A stretch of 64,000 nt of DNA from Dryococelus australis (lineage: Eukaryota > Arthropoda > Insecta > Phasmatodea > Phasmatidae), in contig CM056994.1 in NCBI GenBank assembly GCA_029891345.1, forward strand, positions 138,902,457 to 138,966,456, given 5' to 3'. The stretch's first letter is position 1. Each line of letters begins with the position of its first letter. The position numbers and the translations under genes were made by a program. The notes below the pieces were generated by a model. That model was not told where the DNA came from and ran no database searches. It worked only from the letters and a program-made list of their open reading frames with translations. This document shows, in pieces, positions 11,821 through 63,825 of this stretch.

Positions 11821-12260
11821 AAAATAACTGTAGAATACATTTAAAACCAATATTTTATTTATAAATGCACAGAAAAGAGAAAAATAATTATAGTATTTAC
11901 AAAATTTGTAGAACTTGTAAGATGTGGTCGAACAGCTGTAATAGACTTTACTACAAATTAATATGTTTGTATCAAATTGTATTTAGTATTTAAAAGATTG
12001 GCGCAAATAGTCTCGTGTCTTACGCAAGATATGGGCTTACTACGCTTACGCAAATGAGGCATACGTTCAATATGGCGCCAAGCTTATATATATAAAAATT
12101 AATTGATACAAACATTGTAATTTGTAGTAAAGTTTATTACGGCTGTTCTGCCACATCTTAAAATTTCTACAAATTGCGTTATTAATATAATTATTTCAAC
12201 TCTTTAGTGCATTTATAAATAAAAGCTTGGTTTTAAAAGTTTTGTTACAGGTATTATTTC
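11821..12260. mobile_element. Fold-back / MITE-like inverted repeat element
   Basis: The left arm (11821-11975) is an imperfect reverse complement of the right arm (12103-12260) over about 150 bp. Examples are ATAAATGCAC against GTGCATTTAT, GATGTGGTCGAACAGCTG against CGGCTGTTCTGCCACATC, and TTTACTACAAATTA against TAATTTGTAGTAAA. About 127 bp separate the arms. There is no ORF, so this is a non-autonomous element or an inverted duplication. The terminal motif and target duplication were not resolved. Confidence 0.65.
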
Positions 12261-19772: not shown

Positions 19773-19919
19773 CTGGCTTCTACAATTGCTATTTGTTATA
19801 TTATTTCCTTTTCAACGATGTATTAGTCATTATCCTGTGATGGACTCTTGATGAAATACGGCTGCCTAATCATTGGCGCGAGTCGTCTAGTCACTGAGGC
19901 TCCTCGCCAAGTGCAACTG
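19773..19919 (+). repeat. Left terminal inverted repeat of transposon A
   Basis: Pairs with 26062-26212. Matching blocks include TCATTATCCTGTGATGGACT against TCATTATTCTGTGATGGACT, TGATGAAATACGGCTGCC against TGATGAGATACGGCCGCC, and CAATCATTGG-like and CGTCGTCTAGTCAC-like blocks. Identity by eye is roughly three quarters or better. Confidence 0.8.
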
Positions 19920-20100
19920 CGAGCCGACTGAATCTAGATAAGTATAAGCCAGTTATAATTTCCCATTAACATATGTATAATTTCAGTCTACTCTTCGATT
20001 TTGCATTATAAACAAAGGAAAGAGAAGGCAATTTAGTGATTTTTTTTATAAATTACAAATCGATATTTATAAAGGAGCCTCCTCAGGATCATCTTCGTAA

Positions 20101-20692
20101 TCACTTCCGTGAGAATCTTGAATTTTTTATATTCATGCAACTTCCTCCTTTACACTGTCCACACATTGTCGAGTAGGCCAATCCAGCACGCCTGCATTCA
20201 CATCTGTAGCCACAGTCTGTCTTACAGCCACAGAAAACCAGGCGCAACAAAGACTCTGGTGCTGGTGCCCGGCTAGTCAGTATTGGAACCAAGAATCCTC
20301 CAAGCAGTTTCCACCCCTCGTAAACTGGACTTAGGGATATGTTATCGCACCTCTGCTAAACCTAAGGAAAAGAACAAGTTTTTGTTATTTACTGTTTCGA
20401 TATTATATGTGTACATTTTGACTCTCAGTGTAGACTTGAAACAACATATTTGATAATATGCCCGCAGTGAATGTTCGGCACATATTGCACTTGTTAATGG
20501 CGATGTCGCTAGTTCAAAAGCCGCCGTCATAGGCTGCTTAGCGATGGAGAGTGTATACTGGATTACTCTGAGTTCATCCAAACTGTTGACATTTATCATA
20601 CAGCATAGAGCTATGACGAACTTCTCTCCAGCAGCACAAACCTCCTCTTTCGTAGACTCTGGACTGTTGAACACTTTAGTGTCATTTCTCAT
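20101..20692 (-). pseudogene. C-terminal region with Cys-rich (CXC-like) module
   Basis: The 5' part of this stretch (20692-20342) encodes STKEEVCAAGEKFVIALCCM and ATSPLTSAICAEHSLRAYYQ, recurring blocks of the family. The last part (20292-20101) encodes APAPESLLRLVFCGCKTDCG followed by a run of regularly spaced cysteines (CxCRRAGL, CGQCKGGSC). In the family this is a compact zinc-binding tail. Stops separate the two parts here. Confidence 0.65.
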
Positions 20693-20818
20693 GTCAGGTC
20701 CCTAGAGAATTTCCTATACTTTCTTTTACCTTTGCCAAGGAAAGCAGATGTGCCACATCCAGTAACTGCATGACAGAAAATTTACGCTATCTTTGCTAAC
20801 CCCGATCTTTTCTTGAAT

Positions 20819-21328
20819 TTACCTTACATTATACACTTTGTTACATTTTGTATTCGTACCTGGACTAAGGACTCTTAATTCCATGTCATAAGTGGCGCGG
20901 GCTAGTATCATGACTGCAATGTCTGTGTCAGAGGCAACGATTGTGACATTGTTTTCCGCAGAAGCCAGCTCAAGTGCTTTTTTCACAATCAGAGTATTGG
21001 CATCGCCCTCAGAATTACACACTTCGATTCTTGCTGTTTCAAAATGGTGGGACAACAAGGTTATCAGTCGTCCGTTAATGTGATGGTTGCTTAGGATATC
21101 TGCTTGTGTTGTGCTCGCATATGTGTTCATGTCAAACATAATTTCAGCAGATGTCCTTTTAGAAGCACGTCGAAAATGTTCTTGTGATTTTGGAGAATGA
21201 ACATTGTAGCAATCAAATACAACAGTCACCGATACTCTATGATGCTTCTGCACAAATTCTAAGTATGAATCCGCTATTTGGCCATAATGCAGGATATGGC
21301 TAAACCAGAGCATGAAGCAGATGTCCAC
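20819..21328 (-). pseudogene. XPG/PIN-like nuclease domain of transposon A gene
   Basis: This is the longest open part of the gene. VVFDCYNVHSPKSQEHFRR supplies a first acidic residue; SEGDANTLIVKKALELA and VTIVASDTDIAVMIL supply further Asp residues in the order and spacing of XPG/PIN I-region motifs (E-x-DA..., then SDTD). The next exon, at about 20730-20768, reads TGCGTSAFLGK, matching the family's usual TGCDTTSAFxGKGK. The fold assignment is inference from these motifs. This region has kept its acidic residues better than the rest of the gene. Confidence 0.65.
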
Positions 21329-24300
21329 AACCGATTACTATTCTTCTTGGGTTGTTTGTGGAGTTTTCCTCTGGTGTGGTGTAGGAGAACAACTCCAAGA
21401 AAACTGATTTGACTGTATTATACATTGCAACTTAATCAAAAACAGCTGGAGGTCTTGGAGAAAGTTCGTAACTGGGACAGTGTTTGAGGTCATTCTCAGT
21501 CTTCATTACATAAACTATCCGCATAAAGAGCTGGTGAGAATTTACAACTACAACATCATCTAGAATCAAGATGCTTCGAGCCACTGCTGAGAGAGGTTTG
21601 ACTCTATTCTTCTGCGTAAGTTTCACTTCACCAAAATTTGAGCCTATTATACATTTCATAGCACCCAAACCAAAATATTCTGCTTGATCACAATTAATAC
21701 TATCATCTCCGACAACACCGGATGCAATTGATTGCAAGCAGTCAACATCCCAAGGTATGGGTTCCTTAAACAATGTCAGTAGGACAGCAATAATGCGAGC
21801 ATCTCTGGTTCTGCGGGAATCCCTTAACTCAACATGCTGCTCAGATAATTCAGCTTTGATGTCAGGAAGATCCTCTAAGGCATTTCACAACTTCAGGCAT
21901 ACTAGAAAAGCAGCTACAAAATATGCAAGTGTACTTTCTGTGATTCCACGCGCTCTTGTAAGTCCCCTTTAGTTTTCAGAGCATGCATAAGATCCTGCTC
22001 TATTTACAAGTCTGTCCATACTCCTCCCCAGAACTCGTTCTTCCTCCGCACAGTGAAGAAACCTTCTAAGATAAATTTGTTGTACTCATGTGGTGGCATT
22101 TGAGATGGTAGTTCCTCCATCTTCCAGAGATCTAGGAAGCTGATTTTGCATAGTGAATGTGTCCAGCAGCATGCAGGTACGGCAACACTGGCCACACACA
22201 CTAAATATGAAGTTCCCAATCACAAGACATTTCAGCTATCATAAAGATGTGCAATATGTCCACCTGCCGGAAGTACTGGACCCATAACTTGCCAGTACGA
22301 CTTTGTTCAGACAATGCTGTGCACTTTCTCTCAAATGATGCTAGAAAACTCACTAGCACAGGTGACTCCAAAGCATCTGGAATAATTTTCTCAATGGTTG
22401 AAACCTCATGAAAGAGTTTGTGTAGTTCTTCTTGATACACCCCAAACAAGTTTTCCATTCCTAATATCATCGTAATCAAGGCTTGGGAAGTTAACATGTA
22501 TGCTCGCACAGTTCTAGAAAATGCATGGCCCGAAATTATGTGTGTTACTGAAGCGATTTGATGGATCTAAATGTATTTATGGAGCTACCTAAATTACAGT
22601 GACTCTACAACTAATTTCCTCTGTGTGTATACAGCTTCGCATAAAACCATTCCAGGGTGGTGCTGAAGACTCTTCTAACCATATAGCAGAGGACAAAAGT
22701 ACATCTGCTGCAATAGAATTTTTGACAGACCGAGCTGTAGCATCAGAGACAGTGGCTATCTCGCGAATGTTAATGCCTTTGAGTTCTGGCAATGCTGACT
22801 TTTTGTAACAATTAACTTGAAGTTTGCCTCTGGCGGCTATGGTGTCTGCTGATGGTGGATGAAGCAGTCTGTTGACTGTCATTGATTATTGGTTTTGGGC
22901 TGGGGTAATAAATCCGGCACTGCCCACTGAGTGAAATGTGCAATGTCCTGTAAGGGTTCCGGTATTAAAATCAGTGTTGTCAAAGCATATTAGATATATC
23001 CTTTCTTGCTTCCACCTGTATTGGCTCCGTCGTGCTCCCTAGCCAAAAATTCATTTCTGCACGGAAAATATATAAAATACCATAGCAAAGCTAATAAGTT
23101 AGGAACAACAAATATATTGGAATTAAGAGTGCTCTTACAAAGGTAGAGAGAAGGAATTGATGGATAAGGAGTGATGATACGAATTTATTTGTAATAGAAA
23201 TGGATTAATACAATGCCTTACCTTTGAAACTCCTTGTAGCTTGCAGAGAATGAAAGACTGCTGAGAATATATCTACTAGCTGTCTCGATGCACGTTTCCG
23301 GTGAATATATACACCAATGCCCAGAGGTGTAGGAGATGTATAAGACATGCAGATATTATAGCTTCTTCGATTGCTGTGTTCTGTTTCTCGATGACTTCAC
23401 CTTGAATTACTCTGTTCAAAAATGTCTTCAATGTTTAAGGCAGCTGTTCTGAATCTAGAGACTCCATGGCAGGGAAAATTTTGGTGTCGAATACTAGTGA
23501 TCGAATATCTCGTTTGATTATATCTGCTGCTGCCTCTACAATGCGAATATTCTTCTATTCTTCCATGTTATTCTTGTCGAAGTACCATTTGTCATGCAGA
23601 ATACTTCTCACTTCCCTTCAAGTTTACAAAGGAAGATTTTCCTTATAGTTCAGTTATAAAAACACTATTCCCATACTGTGCATTTAGTTTCACCTTCAGA
23701 TATTTGGCAGTACTAACGGAATCATTAGGATTATTTGTATTGAAGTTTTACATAGAGTCTACGAGGTCACTTATAAGAAGTTGTGAATCTTCAGCACTAT
23801 CCATATACGCCTACAGCTTTGTAAACGCGAAAGTTCTGCACTCATCTTCAGGCCACCCTCTTCCTCGAAAAAAAGGTTTTATTGTCTTTCAGACTTTGCA
23901 GTGTTCCTAAAATAGACATAATAAGCACTCATTAATAAAAATAATTTTGTAACATTTATTATACTCCTGTACATTACATTATGCTAACAGAATTACTGCC
24001 AGTGAATTAGCTGGAAGCTTACCTGTATATGCAAATAGTAATCGATATTGGTTGTTGTATTTAGCCTCAGCAGCCACGAGGTCAGCTATATTTACAGCCC
24101 GATCATGGACGATCTCGCCCCACGCATCCCCCCGTTCAAGTGCTCAAGCAATAACACTACCCTTAAACGGCAGTGTGATAACTTCCTATATAGTTTTTCT
24201 GAACTTTACTTCCTTTTTGGTTTCCTTCCGAACAGAAGCTTCTTCTCCACAATAAAGGCAGTCCTCCTTTATACTGAAGACATCTACAGAGGAACGAAGG

Positions 24301-24635
24301 CTCCGTTTTGTACCAAGATCGGGATCTTCAGATTTCTTTTCACTACTAAGATCTTTCTTTATTGTACTGAGTCCTGTGTTGTCTTTCTTGGGACAGAAAT
24401 TAGGGAATGTTGTGAATGAGATTATTTCAGTCCCATTCAGCTTTGTCAACAACATTAAGTTTCAGTATAAACCAAATCAAACTTTCACTAGCTTCTAAAC
24501 TTCTAAGCAAACACACATTACCAAATAAATTAACGGATTCATTTTGTAGACGTATGTAGAATATCTGTTTCACCTATCTTAAATGTAAGGTCAATGTGTT
24601 TTACCTACAATTTTTTAAATTTCGTGATAAACGCA

Positions 24636-24745
24636 GGGGCTGCGGTGGTCAAGCGGTCAGATCGCTTATTTTCCACAAAGGCGATCAGGGTTCGATCCCG
24701 GTCGGGGCCACCCCGTGTTGGAAGATGTCGCTGGTCAGACTGATT
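24636..24745 (+). repeat. tRNA-derived SINE (family 2)
   Basis: An A-box-like TGGTCAAGCGG (24646-24656) and B-box GGTTCGATCCC (24689-24699) are followed by GGTCGGGGCCACCCCGTG. The 5' and 3' acceptor halves do not pair and no 3' processing context is present, so it is a SINE rather than a tRNA gene. It sits inside transposon A, upstream of its gene. Confidence 0.7.
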
Positions 24746-25385
24746 TCTTCTTGTTTTTGATTATTATTTTAAGGGTTAAGGATTTTGTATTTTCGAATTT
24801 TATGGTAACATGCACATTCAAATGTATTTATGAGACAAAATATATTACATTTCAAAAAAAAAAAAAACATTTCTACTTCTTTACAAAAAAAGTCATTCAA
24901 CATGCATATATGCCACTAAGAGTGTTATTATGGTTATTGAAATACTAAATCAATAATACTGTTTATGAATGGTGGAACAAACAAAAGAAATGTGCTTCCT
25001 ATCAAGATAAAAAATTCGATAAAGCTCGCAAACACAATGCTCATTCGAAAATAATATAAAATGGGTTTATTTAGATGTTATAAAATCGCACGCAAATTTT
25101 ATTCAATCATAATTTTGATTCAAATGAAAACAGTTCATTACACACAAAAATGAGTTGCGTAAAAATATGCAGGAAAAGGTTAATCTAAATAAAGTAGGTT
25201 TAAAAACATTTGTTTTAATTTACACTGTAAATGTTATTTAGTTCGGCTGTATAGAAGAAGCAAATACAGAACATTGTTGAAATTATTAATGGTGTTTACA
25301 AATTAGTATTATTGTATTGTTAGAATTCTTTTGCATATCTCGCAGCTGTATTTTATGCAATAATTAAAACTTTGAAATCACTTTA

Positions 25386-25535
25386 TTGGATTATGGCCTT
25401 TGCTAAGGAACCATCCCAGCATTTGCATGCAGTGATTTTGGGAAACCGAAATCAGAATGGTTGGGCCGGCGATCTAACCCGAGGCCTTCCGATTGCAAGC
25501 CCAACATGTTACCGTTGCGCCACCTCGCTATTGTA
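25386..25535 (-). repeat. tRNA-derived SINE of a type widespread in Polyneoptera
   Basis: On the minus strand: AGCGAGGTGGCGCAACGGTA (A-box), GGTTAGATCGCC (B-box), ATTCTGATTTCGGTTTCCC, and the tail block GCAAATGCTGGGATGGTTCC, then GCAAAGGCCATAATCC. The body and tail match SINEs I recognise from locusts, cockroaches and termites. It inserted into transposon A. Recognition is from memory, not a search. Confidence 0.8.
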
Positions 25536-26061
25536 ATGAACGTTGTAATAGAGATGCAATACTTAATGCTATATCTAAACGAGTGCACGCGTTTATAATA
25601 AAGCTATAATAAATAACTTAACCTGCATCGTTCGTGCAACTTCAATGGCGACCCATTCTCCACGAGAGATCACAAAAAAGGGACGTTTCCATCAGCCCTT
25701 TGTTCACTGGCATTAACAAGTTACAACAATCCTCTTTTTACTGTAGTTACTTCTTCCTGACCAGGCTTCAATGTTTTTTTTTGGAAACCAAGCACTAAGA
25801 TCGACTAGCCATATCTACTAGTACTTCATTTCTAACAACCAAATCACTCTACAAAATAAATCATTCATTCCGAAGCACCAGCAAATACGCAACTGCACAC
25901 AGTGTGTTAATATTTCTGATACGTCCAGTTAAACACTGAACATTTATGCGACGAGTTATTCACTGTTCAGTCGACTGCATGTAATCGACATGGTAGACAA
26001 TAGACACGTGTGCAAGTATTTGCAATAGGACGCGTTGGATGAGCAGGTCTAGACAACACAA

Positions 26062-26212
26062 CCTGCACGTGGAGATGCGCGCCAGTTCTTGTGACTAGAC
26101 GACGCGCACCAATGATTGGGCGGCCGTATCTCATCAACAGTCCATCACAGAATAATGACAAATACGCCGTTGTAAAGGAAAAAATATAACTAATATCAAT
26201 TGTAGTAGCCAG
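26062..26212 (-). repeat. Right terminal inverted repeat of transposon A
   Basis: Reverse-complement partner of 19773-19919. The plus-strand outer end reads CAATTGTAGTAGCCAG. The open frame at 25967-26161 lies largely on this repeat and is not a gene. Confidence 0.8.
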
Positions 26213-30660: not shown

Positions 30661-30859
30661 CAAAAATGTATTAAAATTCTAGTTATCTGTGACCTTGAGA
30701 TATGTTGTTTTTTCAAGATGGCGTCCAAGGAACATGTTATGAGAGGAAAAGTGTTTTATCTCAAAAACTATTCAACCTTGGAAGGTAATTTTGGTGCCGA
30801 ACCTCATGTTTATGGGCCCAATAAATTAAATGAAATCAAGTTAAATACTCTCAGTTTAG
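30661..30859 (+). repeat. Left inverted repeat of element B
   Basis: Pairs with 33544-33747. Similarity is patchy, with strongest blocks at 30708-30725 (CAAGATGGCGTCC), 30781-30795 (AAGGTAATTTTGGT) and 30845-30858 (ATACTCTCAGTTTA). The outer end is uncertain. The open frame 30649-30960 overlaps it and is not considered a gene. Confidence 0.55.
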
Positions 30860-31027: not shown

Positions 31028-33352
31028 ATGAGTACTTTCAGTGCTGACGAAACTTGTCCAATTTGTCACATCCAAGTGGGTGCTGGATATGATGTCCATA
31101 TTTGACAAAAGGGTGCGGATGGAATAAATGCAGCAAGTGCGCAGAGAGATGATACTATTACTGTGACTGCTGGCAGTAAAGTAACAACAGAAATATAACT
31201 TAATTTGAAGAGGAAACATCTGGGAGAATCTGGTAATACTCAAAGGAGTACTAGAGTGTATGAGGGTACATTCAATAGTAAAACCGCCTGCTTATTCTCT
31301 GGAAAAAGTGCTCTGGAAGTGAGTAATACAGGATATAGTTCTGTAAAAACTGATATCTTTACAAAGATAATTTTTCAATATTGTGATAGTCGTCGTGATG
31401 AGTAGTCATTCAAAATAAAAGGTAGAATCGAATACTTTAATGGTGATCTTCATGGTGCTAACAGCAAGTACCATCACAATTGTAGCAACAATTTTCATTG
31501 TGGCTGTAATAAAACCCAGCTATTTCGAAGTAACCCTGAGATGAAGCGAAGGAAATCGGGAAGGTCTACGAATGAAGATTAAAAAACAAGCATTCTCAAA
31601 AATGTGTGCCTACCTAGAATCAAATAACGAAGAACAGCTAACAGTGTCTGACCTCAAGAGCAAAATGAAGGAGTATTTGTTAGATATTGATTCCTTACCC
31701 TATGTTCATCAGTACCTATTAAAAAAAAACAGCTGAGGGAACTGTATGGGACTTCTATACATATTGCAGAAGGAGACAGTTTACATGATATAGTTAGAAT
31801 GAGAGAGAAAACTGCACACATTCTCAGGACATATTTCGACACTTCGCAGAGACTGTCGGTCTCCATCCAACTATTGATTACATTCCAGAATCCCTTCGTA
31901 TTCTGTTAAACACAATGTTTGTGGGGAAAGATACTCAACAGAAAGATGCCAGAATAGCTCAGGCAATAATTCAAGCAGATCGTCCAAGAGCTGTCATTGC
32001 ACCATTGCAAATATATCTTACAGTGAAAATGCATCACTTAAATAGGTCGACGTTTCTTGTGGGCATCTTGCGTAAGTAAGATGGGGTTCTGCTCTTCATA
32101 TAGTGAAATGCACAGGTTTGAAAAAAAAAAATGCTGCTATTTTTGCTCCTCCGAACATACTTGGAAGCGATATTAACGTAAGGAACACAGCCGTGCTATT
32201 TGCAGATGACAATGTTGATCACAACATTATTACAATCAATGGACAAGGAACTTTTCACGGAATGGGTATGATAGCTGCATTGACACCAGGGCAGAAGACA
32301 GTGTACAGTTTCCTTAGGCACAAACCTATGGATATTAACATTGTGGAGCTTTCAAAAGTTCCGATAATATATCATATTTCAACAAAAAACTACCATCAAG
32401 ATGTAAAATTCGCAGTTCTTCCAAGTCTTTCAGAATGTGTAAAGAAAGTGGATATATTGTGGGAATTGCCATTCAGTCTCAGAAACGCACTGCCAGGTTG
32501 GCACTGGATGATGCGCATTATTCATCAGGGAAACGAACACCCATATCAGTCTTCAATCAGGTATCTACCCATGATAGACATGCATTCTGGGGACAAGACT
32601 TGTATTCTTTGAACATTGGAGTTCTTTTGTAAGCTTACGACCAAGCACCGCCTTCAGCATATAGTCACATTCCAATCAGCCTCTGGACTGGAAGACCGTA
32701 GCGATAATCACCGACTCACCATTAGACAGCCATCTGAAATACATTGCCCTGTTCCTAGGGAGTTTCCACATGTATATGAATTTGCTGGGAGCAGTTGTTT
32801 CATTTATGGCAGGCACAGGACTTACTGAAATTCTACGAGTAGTCTATGTTGAGAATTCAGTAGCTCATATAATGACCGGGAAATCGGTTCAGAGAGTGTT
32901 TCGTGGCCATCTTCTCGTAGAAAACTGTCTGAATCGTATAATGGTGTCCGAGATGACGAATGAAGACCCAGATTTGGCAACAATGGTTGGAATATGTGAG
33001 GGGTATAGTGTACTATTGAATGGTGAGGTGACGTTGGAAACATTATTAAAATCAAAAACACTCAGTCAAATGACAATAAAGTTAGAGAAAAGGAAGATCT
33101 AACTGTGTGGTATGTCTGAGACAAGTTAATTATGGCTAAATTATCAAAGGGTGGTTGCAGTTGCAAGGTCATTAATAATGGCAGATCGAACAGGTTCTTG
33201 GTTGAATCACTTACGTGCTGTTTCTGACTGCCTTCCAATATTCGCTGCAGCAGGGCATTATAATGATTGAAATCTGCACACTTCTATGTTCAAGAAATGA
33301 CTCAACTTCACACAAATCACCCAGATGTATTAAGCAATTTTGAATATTAAGT
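31028..33352 (+). pseudogene. Element B gene: N-terminal half of the same multidomain family
   Basis: In order: CPICHIQVGAG (Cys pair), KGADGINAASAQRDDTITV, CLFSGKS (second pair, one Cys lost) and HGANSKYHHNCSNNF. Then come LYGTSIHIAEGDSLHDIVRM and YIPESLRILLNTMFVGKDTQ. The signature ADDNVDHNIITINGQGTF followed by HGMGMIAALTPGQK lies at about 32200-32300. SIRYLPMIDMHSGD, FHMYMNLLGAVVSFMAGTGL and LRAVSDCLPIFAAAGHY (about 33210) end the copy. It reads without introns, with several stops and frame changes. The part that follows in the family is absent; the sequence runs into the right inverted repeat. Confidence 0.78.
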
Positions 33353-33543
33353 AATTTAGGAGAAATGATATGATCATTCTATTGGGTGTAATATATAGCT
33401 TTTTAATTTTTTTAAAACCATAATTTACTGTAAATACTTACAGAACACAGTTTTGACTTTTTTTGCTCATAAAATTTTGGTAACTTAAACGTCCATAACT
33501 TGACTGTGAATAATTCTAATTTAATTTCATTCTTATTTAATAA

Positions 33544-33747
33544 TAAACTGAGAGTAATTTACTGGATTTCATTGCACATCTTCAGTCTTAAAATATAAGC
33601 TTATAAACCAAAACCACCTTTCTGTGCTTAATTGTGATTCACATATCTATTTTTATGCTTTTGGTAGCCACTTTGGGCGGCATCTTGGAAATTACCCCTT
33701 TAAAATGCTCCGAGTGAACTACACTTTTAGTACTTCATTTAATACAT
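33544..33747 (-). repeat. Right inverted repeat of element B
   Basis: Reverse-complement partner of 30661-30859. The plus strand shows TAAACTGAGAGTA at 33544 and GGGCGGCATCTTGG at about 33674. Confidence 0.55.
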
Positions 33748-38388: not shown

Positions 38389-48660
<10,272 letters not shown>

Positions 48661-56871: not shown

Positions 56872-59800
56872 TCAGGGATGTTCGAGATCTCCTCTGGGTT
56901 GCAAAGCTCTTGAAATCTTCATCACTGTCATATTTGAAGTATACGTGCAATAAGTCACTTTTCCAATACTGAAAATGAACTTCCTGAACCATAGTATGTT
57001 GTTTCCATTACTGTCAACTTGCTTATTTTTTAACAACTCCTTCTGCACTGTCTTAAAGACCAGGAACTCTTCTTGATCCATCTAATCAACCGTGTACAGT
57101 CAGTCTCTCCTTTGATGTCATTGGAACGAGTGTATACCAACCTGATGGGTCATAAATGTTGACATTTTTCGATGTTTTCTTAATGTTATCATGAACAGAG
57201 TCGCACTCCATTTGGGAATACCCAGTTCGAAAAAGCAGTGGTCGATGGTTGGAATATTTACAGTTTTCACTCCATAGAGAAGCATGGTGCACATTTTGTT
57301 GTTCCTATTTTGTCCACATGTATCTGAAAATAAATAAATTGGCTTCCTATCAGCGATGTTTTGGAGTTATTTGAGTAAACACGATGCTATTTCTGACGAT
57401 CCACTTCTAGCAGTTCCCTCATGCCACATGTAATTTGTAGCTTTTTTTGCTGGAGTGTTGTATACTCTTCTGTTGTGTACAGCAACCCTGTGTTTGTCAA
57501 AATGATTTTCCATATATAGATGGACAGTACCTAACAGCTTCTAGATCAAACTCTAGCAAGTGACAATGTGCATTCTTGGCAAGATCCTTAATCCGGTTTT
57601 TTAAATTTCGTGCAGATAACATGCACTTCAAATTTTCATTTTGGATATCTTGCTGTTCATCCTGTTTTTCAGATGCCAGATTTCTGAAACGAAAACAACT
57701 AACGAATTCATCTTTCCTTGGAGAATGGACAGACAAATTGAACTCTGTATTGAAAATTTGTCTGTAAAGCCATACTTTTTCAGGTTTCACCCTTGGTGAG
57801 ACAGCATCACATTCTGCTATATACAAACTGTACATTTTTTCAAGATTAAGATCTGATGCAAGGTACTGTTCAGACATGTCTCTACGGCAATAGTGTGATG
57901 GCACAACAGGAAAGGATGTAATATGATTCCTAATTCTTTCTCTCGCATGCATATCTCTTACATACCGGTGAATGATGCCCTCTTCCATTACTACTTACCA
58001 TAATGCTGCTGTCTCTTTTTCTTACAACAGTACGCAAAAATGTTAAATAAATTCCGAACATTCTTAGAAAAAAAACAGAGATCAACTTGGACTGCATTGT
58101 TCCCCTTGGGTATAAAATATTGCTTGCTAACTTGTCTCCAACATGATTTATCATTTCCACGAATTATTCCTTTGGGAACGATTTTTACAAGAGGAAACAG
58201 GCATTGCCTCTGTTTATTTATATCATTCATGTGCCAAAACCTTTCAAATATCTGCTTACTATCAACCTCATTAATTTTTTCATTGCACTTTCTAGTACAT
58301 TTGGAAGTCTTTGAAAGGAAATGACTTGCAAGGGATCTCCTTTCCAGAAGTGCATATGTATGCTTTGCCTGACTGCCTATTTTATTTTCCAACATTTTTT
58401 TTCTCAGGCAGAAATATTTTTTACCCTTTTCCTAGTTTTTTTCTTTTCAGACATGGCATCTTCTTTTGTAACCGGCACATAAGGTTTATTATTTTCCGAA
58501 AACAGTGACTGTATAAACAACTCCTTACCTTGATTAGCTGGATCAAGTGGACCAAATACTTCACTCATAATGGCACTAGCTGTAATATTACCAGTGCCGC
58601 CCTTATCAGTTTCAGGTTGTGGTTCAGCTCGATATGACACAAAAACTTTAAGCTTTTTGGTGATTTTATTCTTTTGATGGCACTTACATTTTTTCATTAT
58701 GTTGTTAGTTACTTTATCATGGCTGTCCGAAGAATAGGATCACTGTGTATGTTCAGTAGGGCTATAGTCATCAGAATATTCTGCTAGTAGTTCTTTAATA
58801 TTTTCCATATCATCCAAAGATTGATTCTCCTGGAATATCTTAAACATTCTCCACATCAGAAAGATGGATTTCTTCTATTTGAATAGCTGACTTTCCAAGG
58901 ATACTGTTCACTATATACGACATCCAGATTTGTTCTTCGGTTAACTCAGATGATACATCTGTAGTTGTATAACTTTCTTCAGCTACTGACTGACTTTCAC
59001 CACCTATAACAGAAAAACTCATTTTAAGTATATACTTTAGATGCCTTTTGTTACCCTGCAATTTGACAGCAAACAACACAGGAAGGTAATTTTGCCATTG
59101 TAGTTGGTACTCAGAACAACGTATAAATTCCAAAACATGCATGTAAAAGTGTATAGGGAATGTTATCAAGAAGCAGAAATGATGCAGTATCTCAAACATT
59201 TTCAATTTTTTTAAAGCGTTTCTTAGTCTGTCAAGAATATTGAAGATTTAAAACAATATCCACACAGAAACTTTTTTTGTACCAATAATGGCGGTCCAAA
59301 ATCTGTAATGTAGCACTTTTTAAAGCATATAAACAGCGACAATCTTTAGCTATTTCACTTTGGTCTACATTTTCTAATATAATCCAGACCTTACTGAATA
59401 GAGCTGGAACTAAATTATTATATACATCATTGTAGCAAACATTACACTCCCAAATGCAACGCAAATCACCATGTATACTCTTATTCAATACTATGATAAA
59501 TAAATGCACCGAACATAGCCCACACTAAATACAACCTATCCTGAAACTAGCCTAACTGAACCTACCCATCATATAAGTACAACTATGAAATTGTGAACGA
59601 TTTTGTGCTTCATTACACCAAAATGTATTTTCTGATAGTACTAGTATTAATCTCAATGCCCTGCAACTCGACTATACATTTAAAAAATGACAGTGGAATA
59701 CATACATGTTAAAGCACTGGGATAATGGAGGCAATGTTTTCGTAGTACAGCACATTATGTACCAGTATAACAATAACTACTAGTAATTTAATGCTTTATT

Positions 59801-62300: not shown

Positions 62301-62640
62301 ATAAAGATAGAGTGGAAAAATATGAAGCAGTTAATTACATGTTGAAAATTGAGAAGAAAGATGGACTTACGCAGCCCTAAAGAGCAGTGGCGAAGAAGAC
62401 TCTCCAAAGCACATACCATAAAACTGACGAACTCAAATTAATCGTACATAGTATGTGCTATCTATGCTAATGTTTTACAAAGTCAAAATATTATTTATAA
62501 ATTAACATGTTATACCTTTTATTACAAAACATTTGTTATATTATGTTAGAAATTTGAGATAAATTTAATTATACATCGTTGCCGATCTCGGTATGTTCTT
62601 TCAATGTATCGCCTTGCACAAATTTGTGATGAAAAATTGT
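62301..62640. other. No gene recognised
   Basis: A short plus-strand coding-like trace (DKDRVEKYEAVNYMLKIEKK, about 62300-62370) is followed by AT-rich DNA. Confidence 0.35.
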
Positions 62641-62649
62641 TCATATGTG

Positions 62650-63280
62650 TATCAAAATGTGTCATTTGTAGAGCACAATGGGTTATTTGTGGAGCAAAGT
62701 GGGTCACTTATGTAGCAAAATGTGTCATTTGAGGAGCGAAATAGTTCATTGTGGGGCAAAATGGGCATTTATGGAGCACAATTTGTAATTTGTGGAGCCA
62801 ATTGGGTCATTTTGATCCACAACCACCCATTTTTCTCCATTAATGATACATTTTGATCCACAAATGACACCAAACGACTCATAACGACCCAGAAGTGACC
62901 CATAACGACCCATACAATACCTGTGACACTTGATTGTAGATCATGTGGAGCATATGGTGCTGATTGTGGTACTGATTGTAGTGCTGATTGTGGTGCATTT
63001 GCATGTGTATGTAGGTACATGTGTATGTGTGTGGTGCTGATTATGTTCCTGAATGTGGTGTTGATTATGGTGCTAATTGTGTTTCTGAATGTGATGCGAT
63101 TGTGGTGCTGATTGTGGCGTGTATGTATGTGTGTAGCCGTGTGTATATGCATAGGTGCGAATGTAGATGTGTGTAGACACGTTTGTATGTATGTGTGTAT
63201 GTAGGTGCATGTGATGTGTGTATACGTATAGGTGAGTGTAGGTGTGTGTAGGTATTTGTATAGGTGTGTGTTTAGCATAT
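62650..63280. repeat. Mosaic of three minisatellites
   Basis: 62650-62820: about eight imperfect copies of AATGGGTCATTTGTGGAGCA, followed by an inverted stretch built from ATTTTGATCCACAAATGAC and by CGACCCATAA-type repeats to about 62925. 62945-63120: a 12-bp GCTGATTGTGGT unit. 63120-63275: a GTGTATGTAG-type unit. The open frames across it (62769-63278 minus and 62923-63111 plus) simply reflect the repeats. Confidence 0.8.
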
Positions 63281-63480
63281 GAGCAAGTGGAGCATGATTA
63301 AAAACTGAACGAAGAACTTGTCCAAGAATGTAAGTTATAAATATGCTTTTCCATCACAATCAGGCAATAGATAAAATGTCAGTTTAAATGGAGGTAAAAA
63401 ATCCTTAAATCTTACTGACGAAATATGTAAGTTGTTTATATATAGCTCACTAACTAGGCAAAGTAGATACACATTTCGGC

Positions 63481-63825
63481 ATGATGGAAAATACTCAGGT
63501 TTTCTTCGTGAATATGTTGCGAGCCAAATATAGTACGAAATCTTCAGTACAGCCTACTTCAATGGTTGTACCTTCGCCCACTGCTGGAAAATTACATGAA
63601 AAACAGCACTGCTACTGTGTAAAGATCTTCAGCAAAAGCTACCATGCTCGTCGGCATGAGAGAATGGTCTGTACGAAGAATACTTTTCGCGCTATAAAGC
63701 ATTACGACATTGGCGTCATGCAGTTCGAACACGGCGATACACTGAAAGAACATACCGAGATCGGCAAGGATGTCGCCAATGCCTCCTGCTACATCAATGG
63801 GTACTTGTTTGGCAGACGATTATGA
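63481..63825 (+). CDS. Unassigned ORF with a C2H2-like finger
   Basis: A 114-codon frame, balanced in composition unlike its surroundings. Near residues 43-65 it has CYCVKIFSKSYHARRHERMVC, resembling the core of a C2H2 finger (C-x-C, F, H...H) though the Cys spacing is not standard. Rich in charged residues afterwards (FEHGDTLKEHTEIGKDVANA). Coding-like sequence seems to resume in another frame at about 63890-64000 (LPHYVDELKNRSLALNSDDD), so it may be a decayed or spliced gene continuing beyond the window. Family unknown; it could belong to a mobile element. Confidence 0.4.
   Translation: MMENTQVFFVNMLRAKYSTKSSVQPTSMVVPSPTAGKLHEKQHCYCVKIFSKSYHARRHERMVCTKNTFRAIKHYDIGVMQFEHGDTLKEHTEIGKDVANASCYINGYLFGRRL

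What the first reader, a model, noticed from the sequence alone, without database searches (positions are those of the whole stretch)
19773..26212. A widespread 'uncharacterised' nuclease-like protein family sits between long inverted repeats
Seen: ~150-bp inverted repeats at both ends enclose one minus-strand gene whose product has the DNxDxN...TFHxxG block, an XPG/PIN-like acidic motif set (SEGDAN, VASDTD), a TGCGTSAF block and a Cys-rich tail. Family knowledge: proteins with these blocks are common, unnamed predictions in cnidarian and arthropod genomes. Inference: they are transposon proteins. The XPG-like domain recalls what I know of Academ transposons, but the family may deserve separate treatment.
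Basis: partly seen in the sequence, partly recalled or inferred. Interest (0 to 1): 0.85.

Follow-up and report, generated by a model that had tools for sequence, protein, structure and literature searches.

The report
Dead DNA transposon with nuclease gene
This stretch is most likely the decayed remains of a DNA transposon (a jumping gene) bounded by 122-base inverted repeats and carrying a ruined gene that fuses a probable transposase to a nuclease; it probably belongs to an already named kind, Academ with a nuclease, so it is a modest find rather than a new system.

Summary
Observation largely confirmed. The nuclease reading is supported: Pfam NYN_YacP (PIN clan, recalled) at E=3.2e-6, above its cut-off, with acidic motifs in the order and roughly the spacing of FEN-type 5' nucleases; no XPG family was hit. 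Best explanation: a defunct cut-and-paste element whose upstream domain (transposase by position, fold not shown) works with a FEN/PIN-type nuclease, most like AcademX. Membership is untested because no Academ sequence or other eukaryotic collection is searchable here. No target-site duplication of 3 bp or more lies flush with the ends, copy number could not be measured (no host genome held), and structure predictions failed (pLDDT 33 and 30). Nothing found supports a separate superfamily, and nothing excludes it. Low-to-moderate interest.

The parts
19773..19894 (+). left terminal inverted repeat (starts CTGGCTTCTACAATTG)
   Evidence: 122 bp, 107/122 identical to the right arm
26091..26212 (-). 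right terminal inverted repeat
24024..24461 (-). N-terminal coding block: CLYCGEE (possible zinc knuckle), ERGDAWGE..AAEAKY; two in-frame stops; GTAAGC after it is a possible intron donor
   Evidence: frames; motif positions; no Pfam match; motif meaning inferred
23279..23873 (-). coding blocks AYMDSAED.. and following, broken by stops and frame changes
   Evidence: AYMDSAED block collinear with the second copy (blastp E=0.009); no Pfam match
22560..23038 (-). DNTDFN...TFHSVG block to PPWNGFM and IHLDPSN; candidate first part of a transposase catalytic domain (inferred)
   Evidence: tblastn E=1.4e-5 to the second copy; positions; no Pfam match
22133..22566 (-). HIISGHAF...WVQYFR...WELHI...AAGHIHYAKS block
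   Evidence: Smith-Waterman 112 against second copy; 2000 shuffles mean 26.4, max 53; Pfam only DUF7905 below its cut-off (E=0.007)
21986..22057 (-). FTVRRKNEFWGGVWTDL-stop-IEQDLM block
   Evidence: frames; positions; family-wide conservation recalled only
21435..21884 (-). 150-aa open block of unknown function
   Evidence: no Pfam match
20822..21341 (-). PIN/FEN-type nuclease domain: IVIGCGHLLH, VVFDCY, NSEGDAN, VASDTD; frame change near 21302
   Evidence: Pfam NYN_YacP E=3.2e-6, 27.7 bits, cut-off 24.6; repeated
20692..20781 (-). TGCGTSAFLGKGK block, equivalent by order and spacing to the GD.SDN..GIG.K motif of FEN-type nucleases (inferred)
   Evidence: 163 nt (54.3 codon lengths, across a frame change) after DxD here; 46-51 residues in 30 of 30 bacterial 5' nuclease loci
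20104..20355 (-). Cys-rich C-terminal tail, candidate zinc-binding module
   Evidence: no Pfam or PDB match
24638..24712 (+). tRNA-Gly-like stretch, probably the head of a SINE inserted in the element
   Evidence: ARAGORN; no other copy in window; SINE reading inferred
31608..33401 (+). second, broken relative of the upstream part of the protein; no nuclease part seen; none of the main element's TIRs; an undecided 30-bp inverted match at 30829-30858 / 33544-33573 encloses it
   Evidence: inverted match

Best explanation
A degenerate, immobile copy of an autonomous cut-and-paste DNA transposon, 6,440 bp from TIR to TIR with a probable later insertion (a tRNA-like stretch) inside it. Its single minus-strand gene once encoded a protein of probably over 1,000 residues (my overlapping read-through has 1,350 letters) with, in order: an N-terminal Cys module, a large domain with the DNxDxN..TFHxxG block that by position is the transposase proper, a FEN/PIN-type metal-dependent nuclease domain, and a Cys-rich tail. 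Inferred mechanism: the Cys modules and the upstream domain bind the TIRs; the upstream domain (probably a DDD/E transposase as in Academ) makes strand cuts and joins; the FEN-like nuclease trims or cuts a strand or flap at the ends and so helps set a short target duplication. Shown here: TIRs, gene between them, PIN-type domain, decay. Inferred: DDD/E fold, division of labour, Academ affinity.
For: TIRs far beyond chance. Nuclease domain by Pfam (3.2e-6) with a FEN-like third motif at similar spacing. A second, diverged and decayed copy of the upstream domain in the same window, as expected for a repeat family. Stops (14) and frame breaks plus an about 85-codon shorter centre (37 versus 122 codon lengths between matched blocks) fit a dead transposon better than a host gene. 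Print: AcademX with a nuclease and 3-4 bp TSDs (PMC10045372, passage); Academ listed among DDD/E superfamilies (PMC9587614, passage); curated Academ elements average 5,565 bp (PMC10294476, passages).
Against: No TSD: flush flanks share 2 of 2, 2 of 3, 2 of 4, 3 of 5, 4 of 8, 5 of 9 and 5 of 10 bases. No copy number. No Academ sequence to compare with. No transposase or XPG family in 25 overlapping Pfam queries (7, 10, 2 and 6); apart from NYN_YacP only matches below the families' cut-offs. Structure models uninformative (pLDDT 33 and 30). My own profiles of YacP, PolA-type 5' nuclease and NYN gave no significant alignment, so the YacP match rests on the Pfam model.
Confidence: 0.72

Rival explanations
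1. It is a member of a transposon superfamily separate from Academ, whose sole or main transposing enzyme is the FEN/PIN-type nuclease and not a DDD/E domain.
For: No transposase family in 25 overlapping Pfam queries; the nuclease is the only domain recognised above a cut-off; no 3-4 bp TSD flush with the ends.
Against: A described Academ lineage already carries a nuclease (passage); Pfam silence on a decayed single sequence says little; the copy is old, so a lost TSD is unsurprising.
Confidence: 0.13
2. A host gene family of nuclease-like proteins; the inverted repeats are coincidental or belong to a different element (for example a pair of MITEs) on each side.
For: Only one copy with these TIRs could be seen; the second relative lacks them.
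Against: The TIRs sit about 210 and 1,630 bp outside the last and first coding blocks in the right orientation; both copies are broken; no other copy of either repeat in 64 kb.
Confidence: 0.08
3. A transposon of another kind (for example one whose TIR-bearing, non-autonomous shell was invaded by the gene, or a composite of two elements).
For: A tRNA-like stretch lies inside the element; the right TIR is about 1.6 kb from the first coding block found.
Against: The long right side may be partly inserted repeats; gene and TIR layout is otherwise the usual one.
Confidence: 0.07

Closest known systems
AcademX lineage of the Academ DNA transposon superfamily (Kojima 2020; paper not held, known here only through a passage of PMC10045372)
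   Same: TIR element of several kb whose gene includes a nuclease; XPG type and a Cys-rich module in AcademX are recalled
   Different: no TSD of 3-4 bp detected here; sequence homology untested; this copy is dead
AcademH lineage
   Same: same superfamily in the printed scheme
   Different: encodes a helicase, not a nuclease, and makes 9-10 bp TSDs; no helicase family in any Pfam query here
FEN/XPG and bacterial PolA-type 5' nucleases
   Same: order VFD - E.D - D.D - G(C/D)..G.G.K, last spacing 54 versus 46-51
   Different: no significant profile match; the last motif's Asp is Gly here, and the domain's first Asp is absent (IVIGCGH) if the recalled family form is right
NYN_YacP (Pfam PF05991; PIN clan membership recalled)
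   Same: significant Pfam match across the E.D and D.D motifs
   Different: bacterial proteins of another role (recalled); a FEN-type third motif is not part of that domain (recalled)

Membership tests
TIR DNA transposon | terminal inverted repeats flanking the gene | tested here: met
   122 bp, 87.7%
TIR DNA transposon | constant-length target-site duplication | tested here: inconclusive
   no match of 3-11 bp flush with the ends; 2-bp TT only; single old copy
TIR DNA transposon | several dispersed copies with the same ends | not testable with these tools
   no host genome held; none in the window
AcademX | nuclease domain in the transposase protein | tested here: met
   PIN-type domain by Pfam; XPG subtype only by motif spacing
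AcademX | 3-4 bp TSD | tested here: inconclusive
   ATT/TTT 2 of 3, GATT/TTTT 2 of 4; old copy
AcademX | DDD/E catalytic triad in the upstream domain | tested here: inconclusive
   the DNxDxN block is shared by two copies, but the fold model failed and the central part is shortened in the main copy
AcademX | sequence homology to named Academ transposases | not testable with these tools
   no Repbase or eukaryotic protein set available; Kojima 2020 not held
AcademH | helicase domain | tested here: not met
   no helicase family in 25 overlapping Pfam queries; caveat: degraded copy
XPG/FEN nuclease | significant match to XPG_N / XPG_I profiles | tested here: not met
   no XPG family listed at E up to 10
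PIN-like superfamily | significant match to a PIN-clan profile with conserved acidic residues | tested here: met
   NYN_YacP 3.2e-6, above curated cut-off; clan assignment recalled

The most novel reading that the evidence does not exclude
A widespread animal transposon superfamily distinct from Academ in which a FEN/PIN-type nuclease, rather than a DDD/E enzyme, carries out part or all of the DNA cutting needed for transposition.
Probability: 0.12. Interest if true: 0.7.

Novelty: new member of a known kind. Interest (0 to 1): 0.3.

Why it matters
If the family is AcademX, this locus ties a set of unnamed animal proteins to mobile DNA, so that they should be masked and not counted as host genes, and it points to a fused flap-type nuclease as part of a transposase, whose role in cutting or in fixing the length of the target duplication is not settled in the passages I read (one search says only that the TSD length seems related to the enzyme). 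If it were separate from Academ it would add a transposon kind with an unusual nuclease.

Tried and rejected
Relatives elsewhere: two tblastn-confirmed scans of viral contigs with window pieces found none. Four degenerate motif patterns in viral contigs gave 0, 0, 10 and 2 matches; read by eye over up to 80 codons on each side, 12 of 12 look like chance. The patterns follow a recalled GCDT form that the element's own block does not have (a similar pattern had 0 matches in the window); the pattern does match both window copies. One pattern in genome contigs gave 2 matches, both read as chance by eye. tblastn of the nuclease piece against phages: no match at E up to 1. PDB by sequence: only unconvincing hits, best E=0.08, none for the Cys-rich tail. 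Structures of the nuclease piece and of the second copy's 178-aa block: pLDDT 33 and 30, not used for any fold search. Own profiles: a first attempt mixed strands and is void. The corrected one (YacP 30 of 30 fetched loci, PolA-type 5' nuclease 30 of 30, NYN 26 fetched, 19 given, 17 used after two short ones dropped; RecA 30 of 30 as negative control) gave YacP 6.5 and 4.5 bits (i-E 9 and 37), 5' nuclease 2.7 bits (i-E 110), NYN 0.1 bits, RecA nothing: the first two align on or next to the acidic motifs but none is significant. TSDs with ends shifted by up to 12 bp: only five matches of 4-5 bp, made of TIR sequence or AT-rich TTTA, treated as chance. TIRs of the second copy: a 30-bp inverted match (90%, E=1e-5) encloses it, but 3 of 53 random pairs of stretches of that size in the window also had a match that good (two of the three the same pair of places), and no TSD accompanies it; undecided. 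Literature: eight searches; nothing in the listings or the passages I opened gives AcademX protein details, and only one listed paper holds the word AcademX.

Full report
What is there. The window (64 kb, 33.5% GC) is eukaryotic by its content (inference) and has no genome held. Two inverted arms of 122 bp, 107 of 122 identical, lie at 19773-19894 and 26091-26212. Their alignment score of 169 compares with a maximum of 34 for up to 300 random pairs of stretches of the window. They begin CTGGC and end GCCAG.

Reading them takes 14 partly overlapping pieces in changing frames with 14 in-frame stops. Some joins may be introns (for instance GTAAGC after 24024); how many was not settled. The copy as it stands cannot code for the whole protein.

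Nuclease. The block 20822-21334 matches Pfam NYN_YacP at E=3.2e-6, 27.7 bits against a curated cut-off of 24.6, again at 3.5e-6 when the frameshifted start is trimmed and 6e-6 when neighbouring blocks are joined. No XPG family appears in 25 overlapping Pfam queries. Profiles that I built from bacterial YacP and PolA-type 5' nucleases align on or next to NSEGDAN and VASDTD, but without significance; a RecA profile gives nothing. In 30 of 30 PolA-type 5' nuclease loci a G(D/E).(S/A)DN...G(I/V)G.K motif (pattern recalled) follows the D.D motif by 46-51 residues; in the element TGCG..GKGK follows by 163 nt, 54.3 codon lengths, across a frame change. This third motif, and not the Pfam hit, is my reason for preferring FEN/XPG-type over plain NYN; it is inference. 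The first Asp of the domain (GCGH here; DGGH in relatives, recalled) and that of the third motif (GCG here; GCD in relatives, recalled) are gone, consistent with decay.

Upstream domain. A second relative lies at about 31.6-33.4 kb on the + strand: tblastn 1.4e-5 over the DNxDxN..TFHxxG block, blastp 5e-5 and 0.009 for two collinear blocks, and a score of 112 for the HIISGHAF-AAGH block, with 0 of 2000 shuffles reaching it (maximum 53). The DNA pattern of the DNxDxN block matches these two places only, and has no match in 100 shuffles. Between the W of PPWNGFM/PGWHWMM and the H of HIISG/HIMTG there are 37 codon lengths in the main copy and 122 in the second, so the main copy appears to have lost about 85 codons; alternatively the second gained them. 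No nuclease part was seen after the second copy (by eye) and the main element's TIRs do not flank it. A 30-bp inverted match at 30829-30858 / 33544-33573 encloses it (90%, E=1e-5), but matches that good also occur in 3 of 53 random pairs and no TSD is seen, so whether it is a separate small element with its own ends is undecided. Structure prediction of single pieces without an alignment failed, so the RNase H fold expected of a DDD/E transposase is not shown. Pfam has nothing for the upstream blocks above a cut-off.

Ends. Flush with the TIRs the flanks share 2 of 2, 2 of 3, 2 of 4 and 5 of 9 bases. No target-site duplication of 3 bp or more is intact. With a 12% difference between the TIRs (which need not have been identical at insertion) an eroded short TSD is plausible, but this is a test not passed.

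Known families. The paper on AcademH and AcademX is not held. A later paper (by the same author, as recalled) says that AcademH makes 9-10 bp and AcademX 3-4 bp TSDs and that this seems related to the helicase and nuclease they encode (PMC10045372, passage); another lists Academ among superfamilies encoding a DDD/E transposase (PMC9587614, passage); a bivalve survey reports 100 curated autonomous Academ consensus sequences with a mean length of 5,565 bp (PMC10294476, passages). An older paper mentions a RecQ helicase in Academ (PMC3627910, passage). The element's size and its layout fit AcademX. That XPG is the AcademX nuclease, and that a Cys-rich zinc finger is typical, is recalled and was not found in a held paper. 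Membership by sequence could not be tested.

Verdict. Most likely an ordinary, decayed transposon copy of a kind already named; the nuclease part is real and mechanistically interesting, and the claim that the family needs separate treatment is open but unsupported here.

Noticed in passing
31608-33401 (+), possible ends 30829-30858 and 33544-33573: Second, broken relative of the transposase-like protein (DDNVDHNIITINGQGTFHGMG and further blocks) without nuclease part; a 30-bp inverted match (90%) encloses it, not beyond doubt.
   Followed up: partly
25400-25535: Stretch inside the element that resembles, from recall, a reverse-oriented tRNA-derived insect SINE; no tool annotated it and no second copy is in the window.
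   Followed up: partly
11834-12243: Fold-back structure: arms of 44 and 104 bp, 84% complementary, 107 bp between the inner arms; looks like a MITE or hairpin element.
   Followed up: no
57497-57994 (-): 165-aa open frame without Pfam match; its SHYCRRDMSEQYL..LN..KMYSLY pattern recalls repeated insect proteins of unknown kind.
   Followed up: partly
43800-44273 (+): 157-aa open frame with a borderline Trypsin match (E=0.0006, 20.2 bits, cut-off 20.6); possible host protease exon.
   Followed up: partly
62573-63773: 44-bp inverted repeat (93%) around 1.1 kb that includes an array of 21-bp repeats at about 62622-62808.
   Followed up: no
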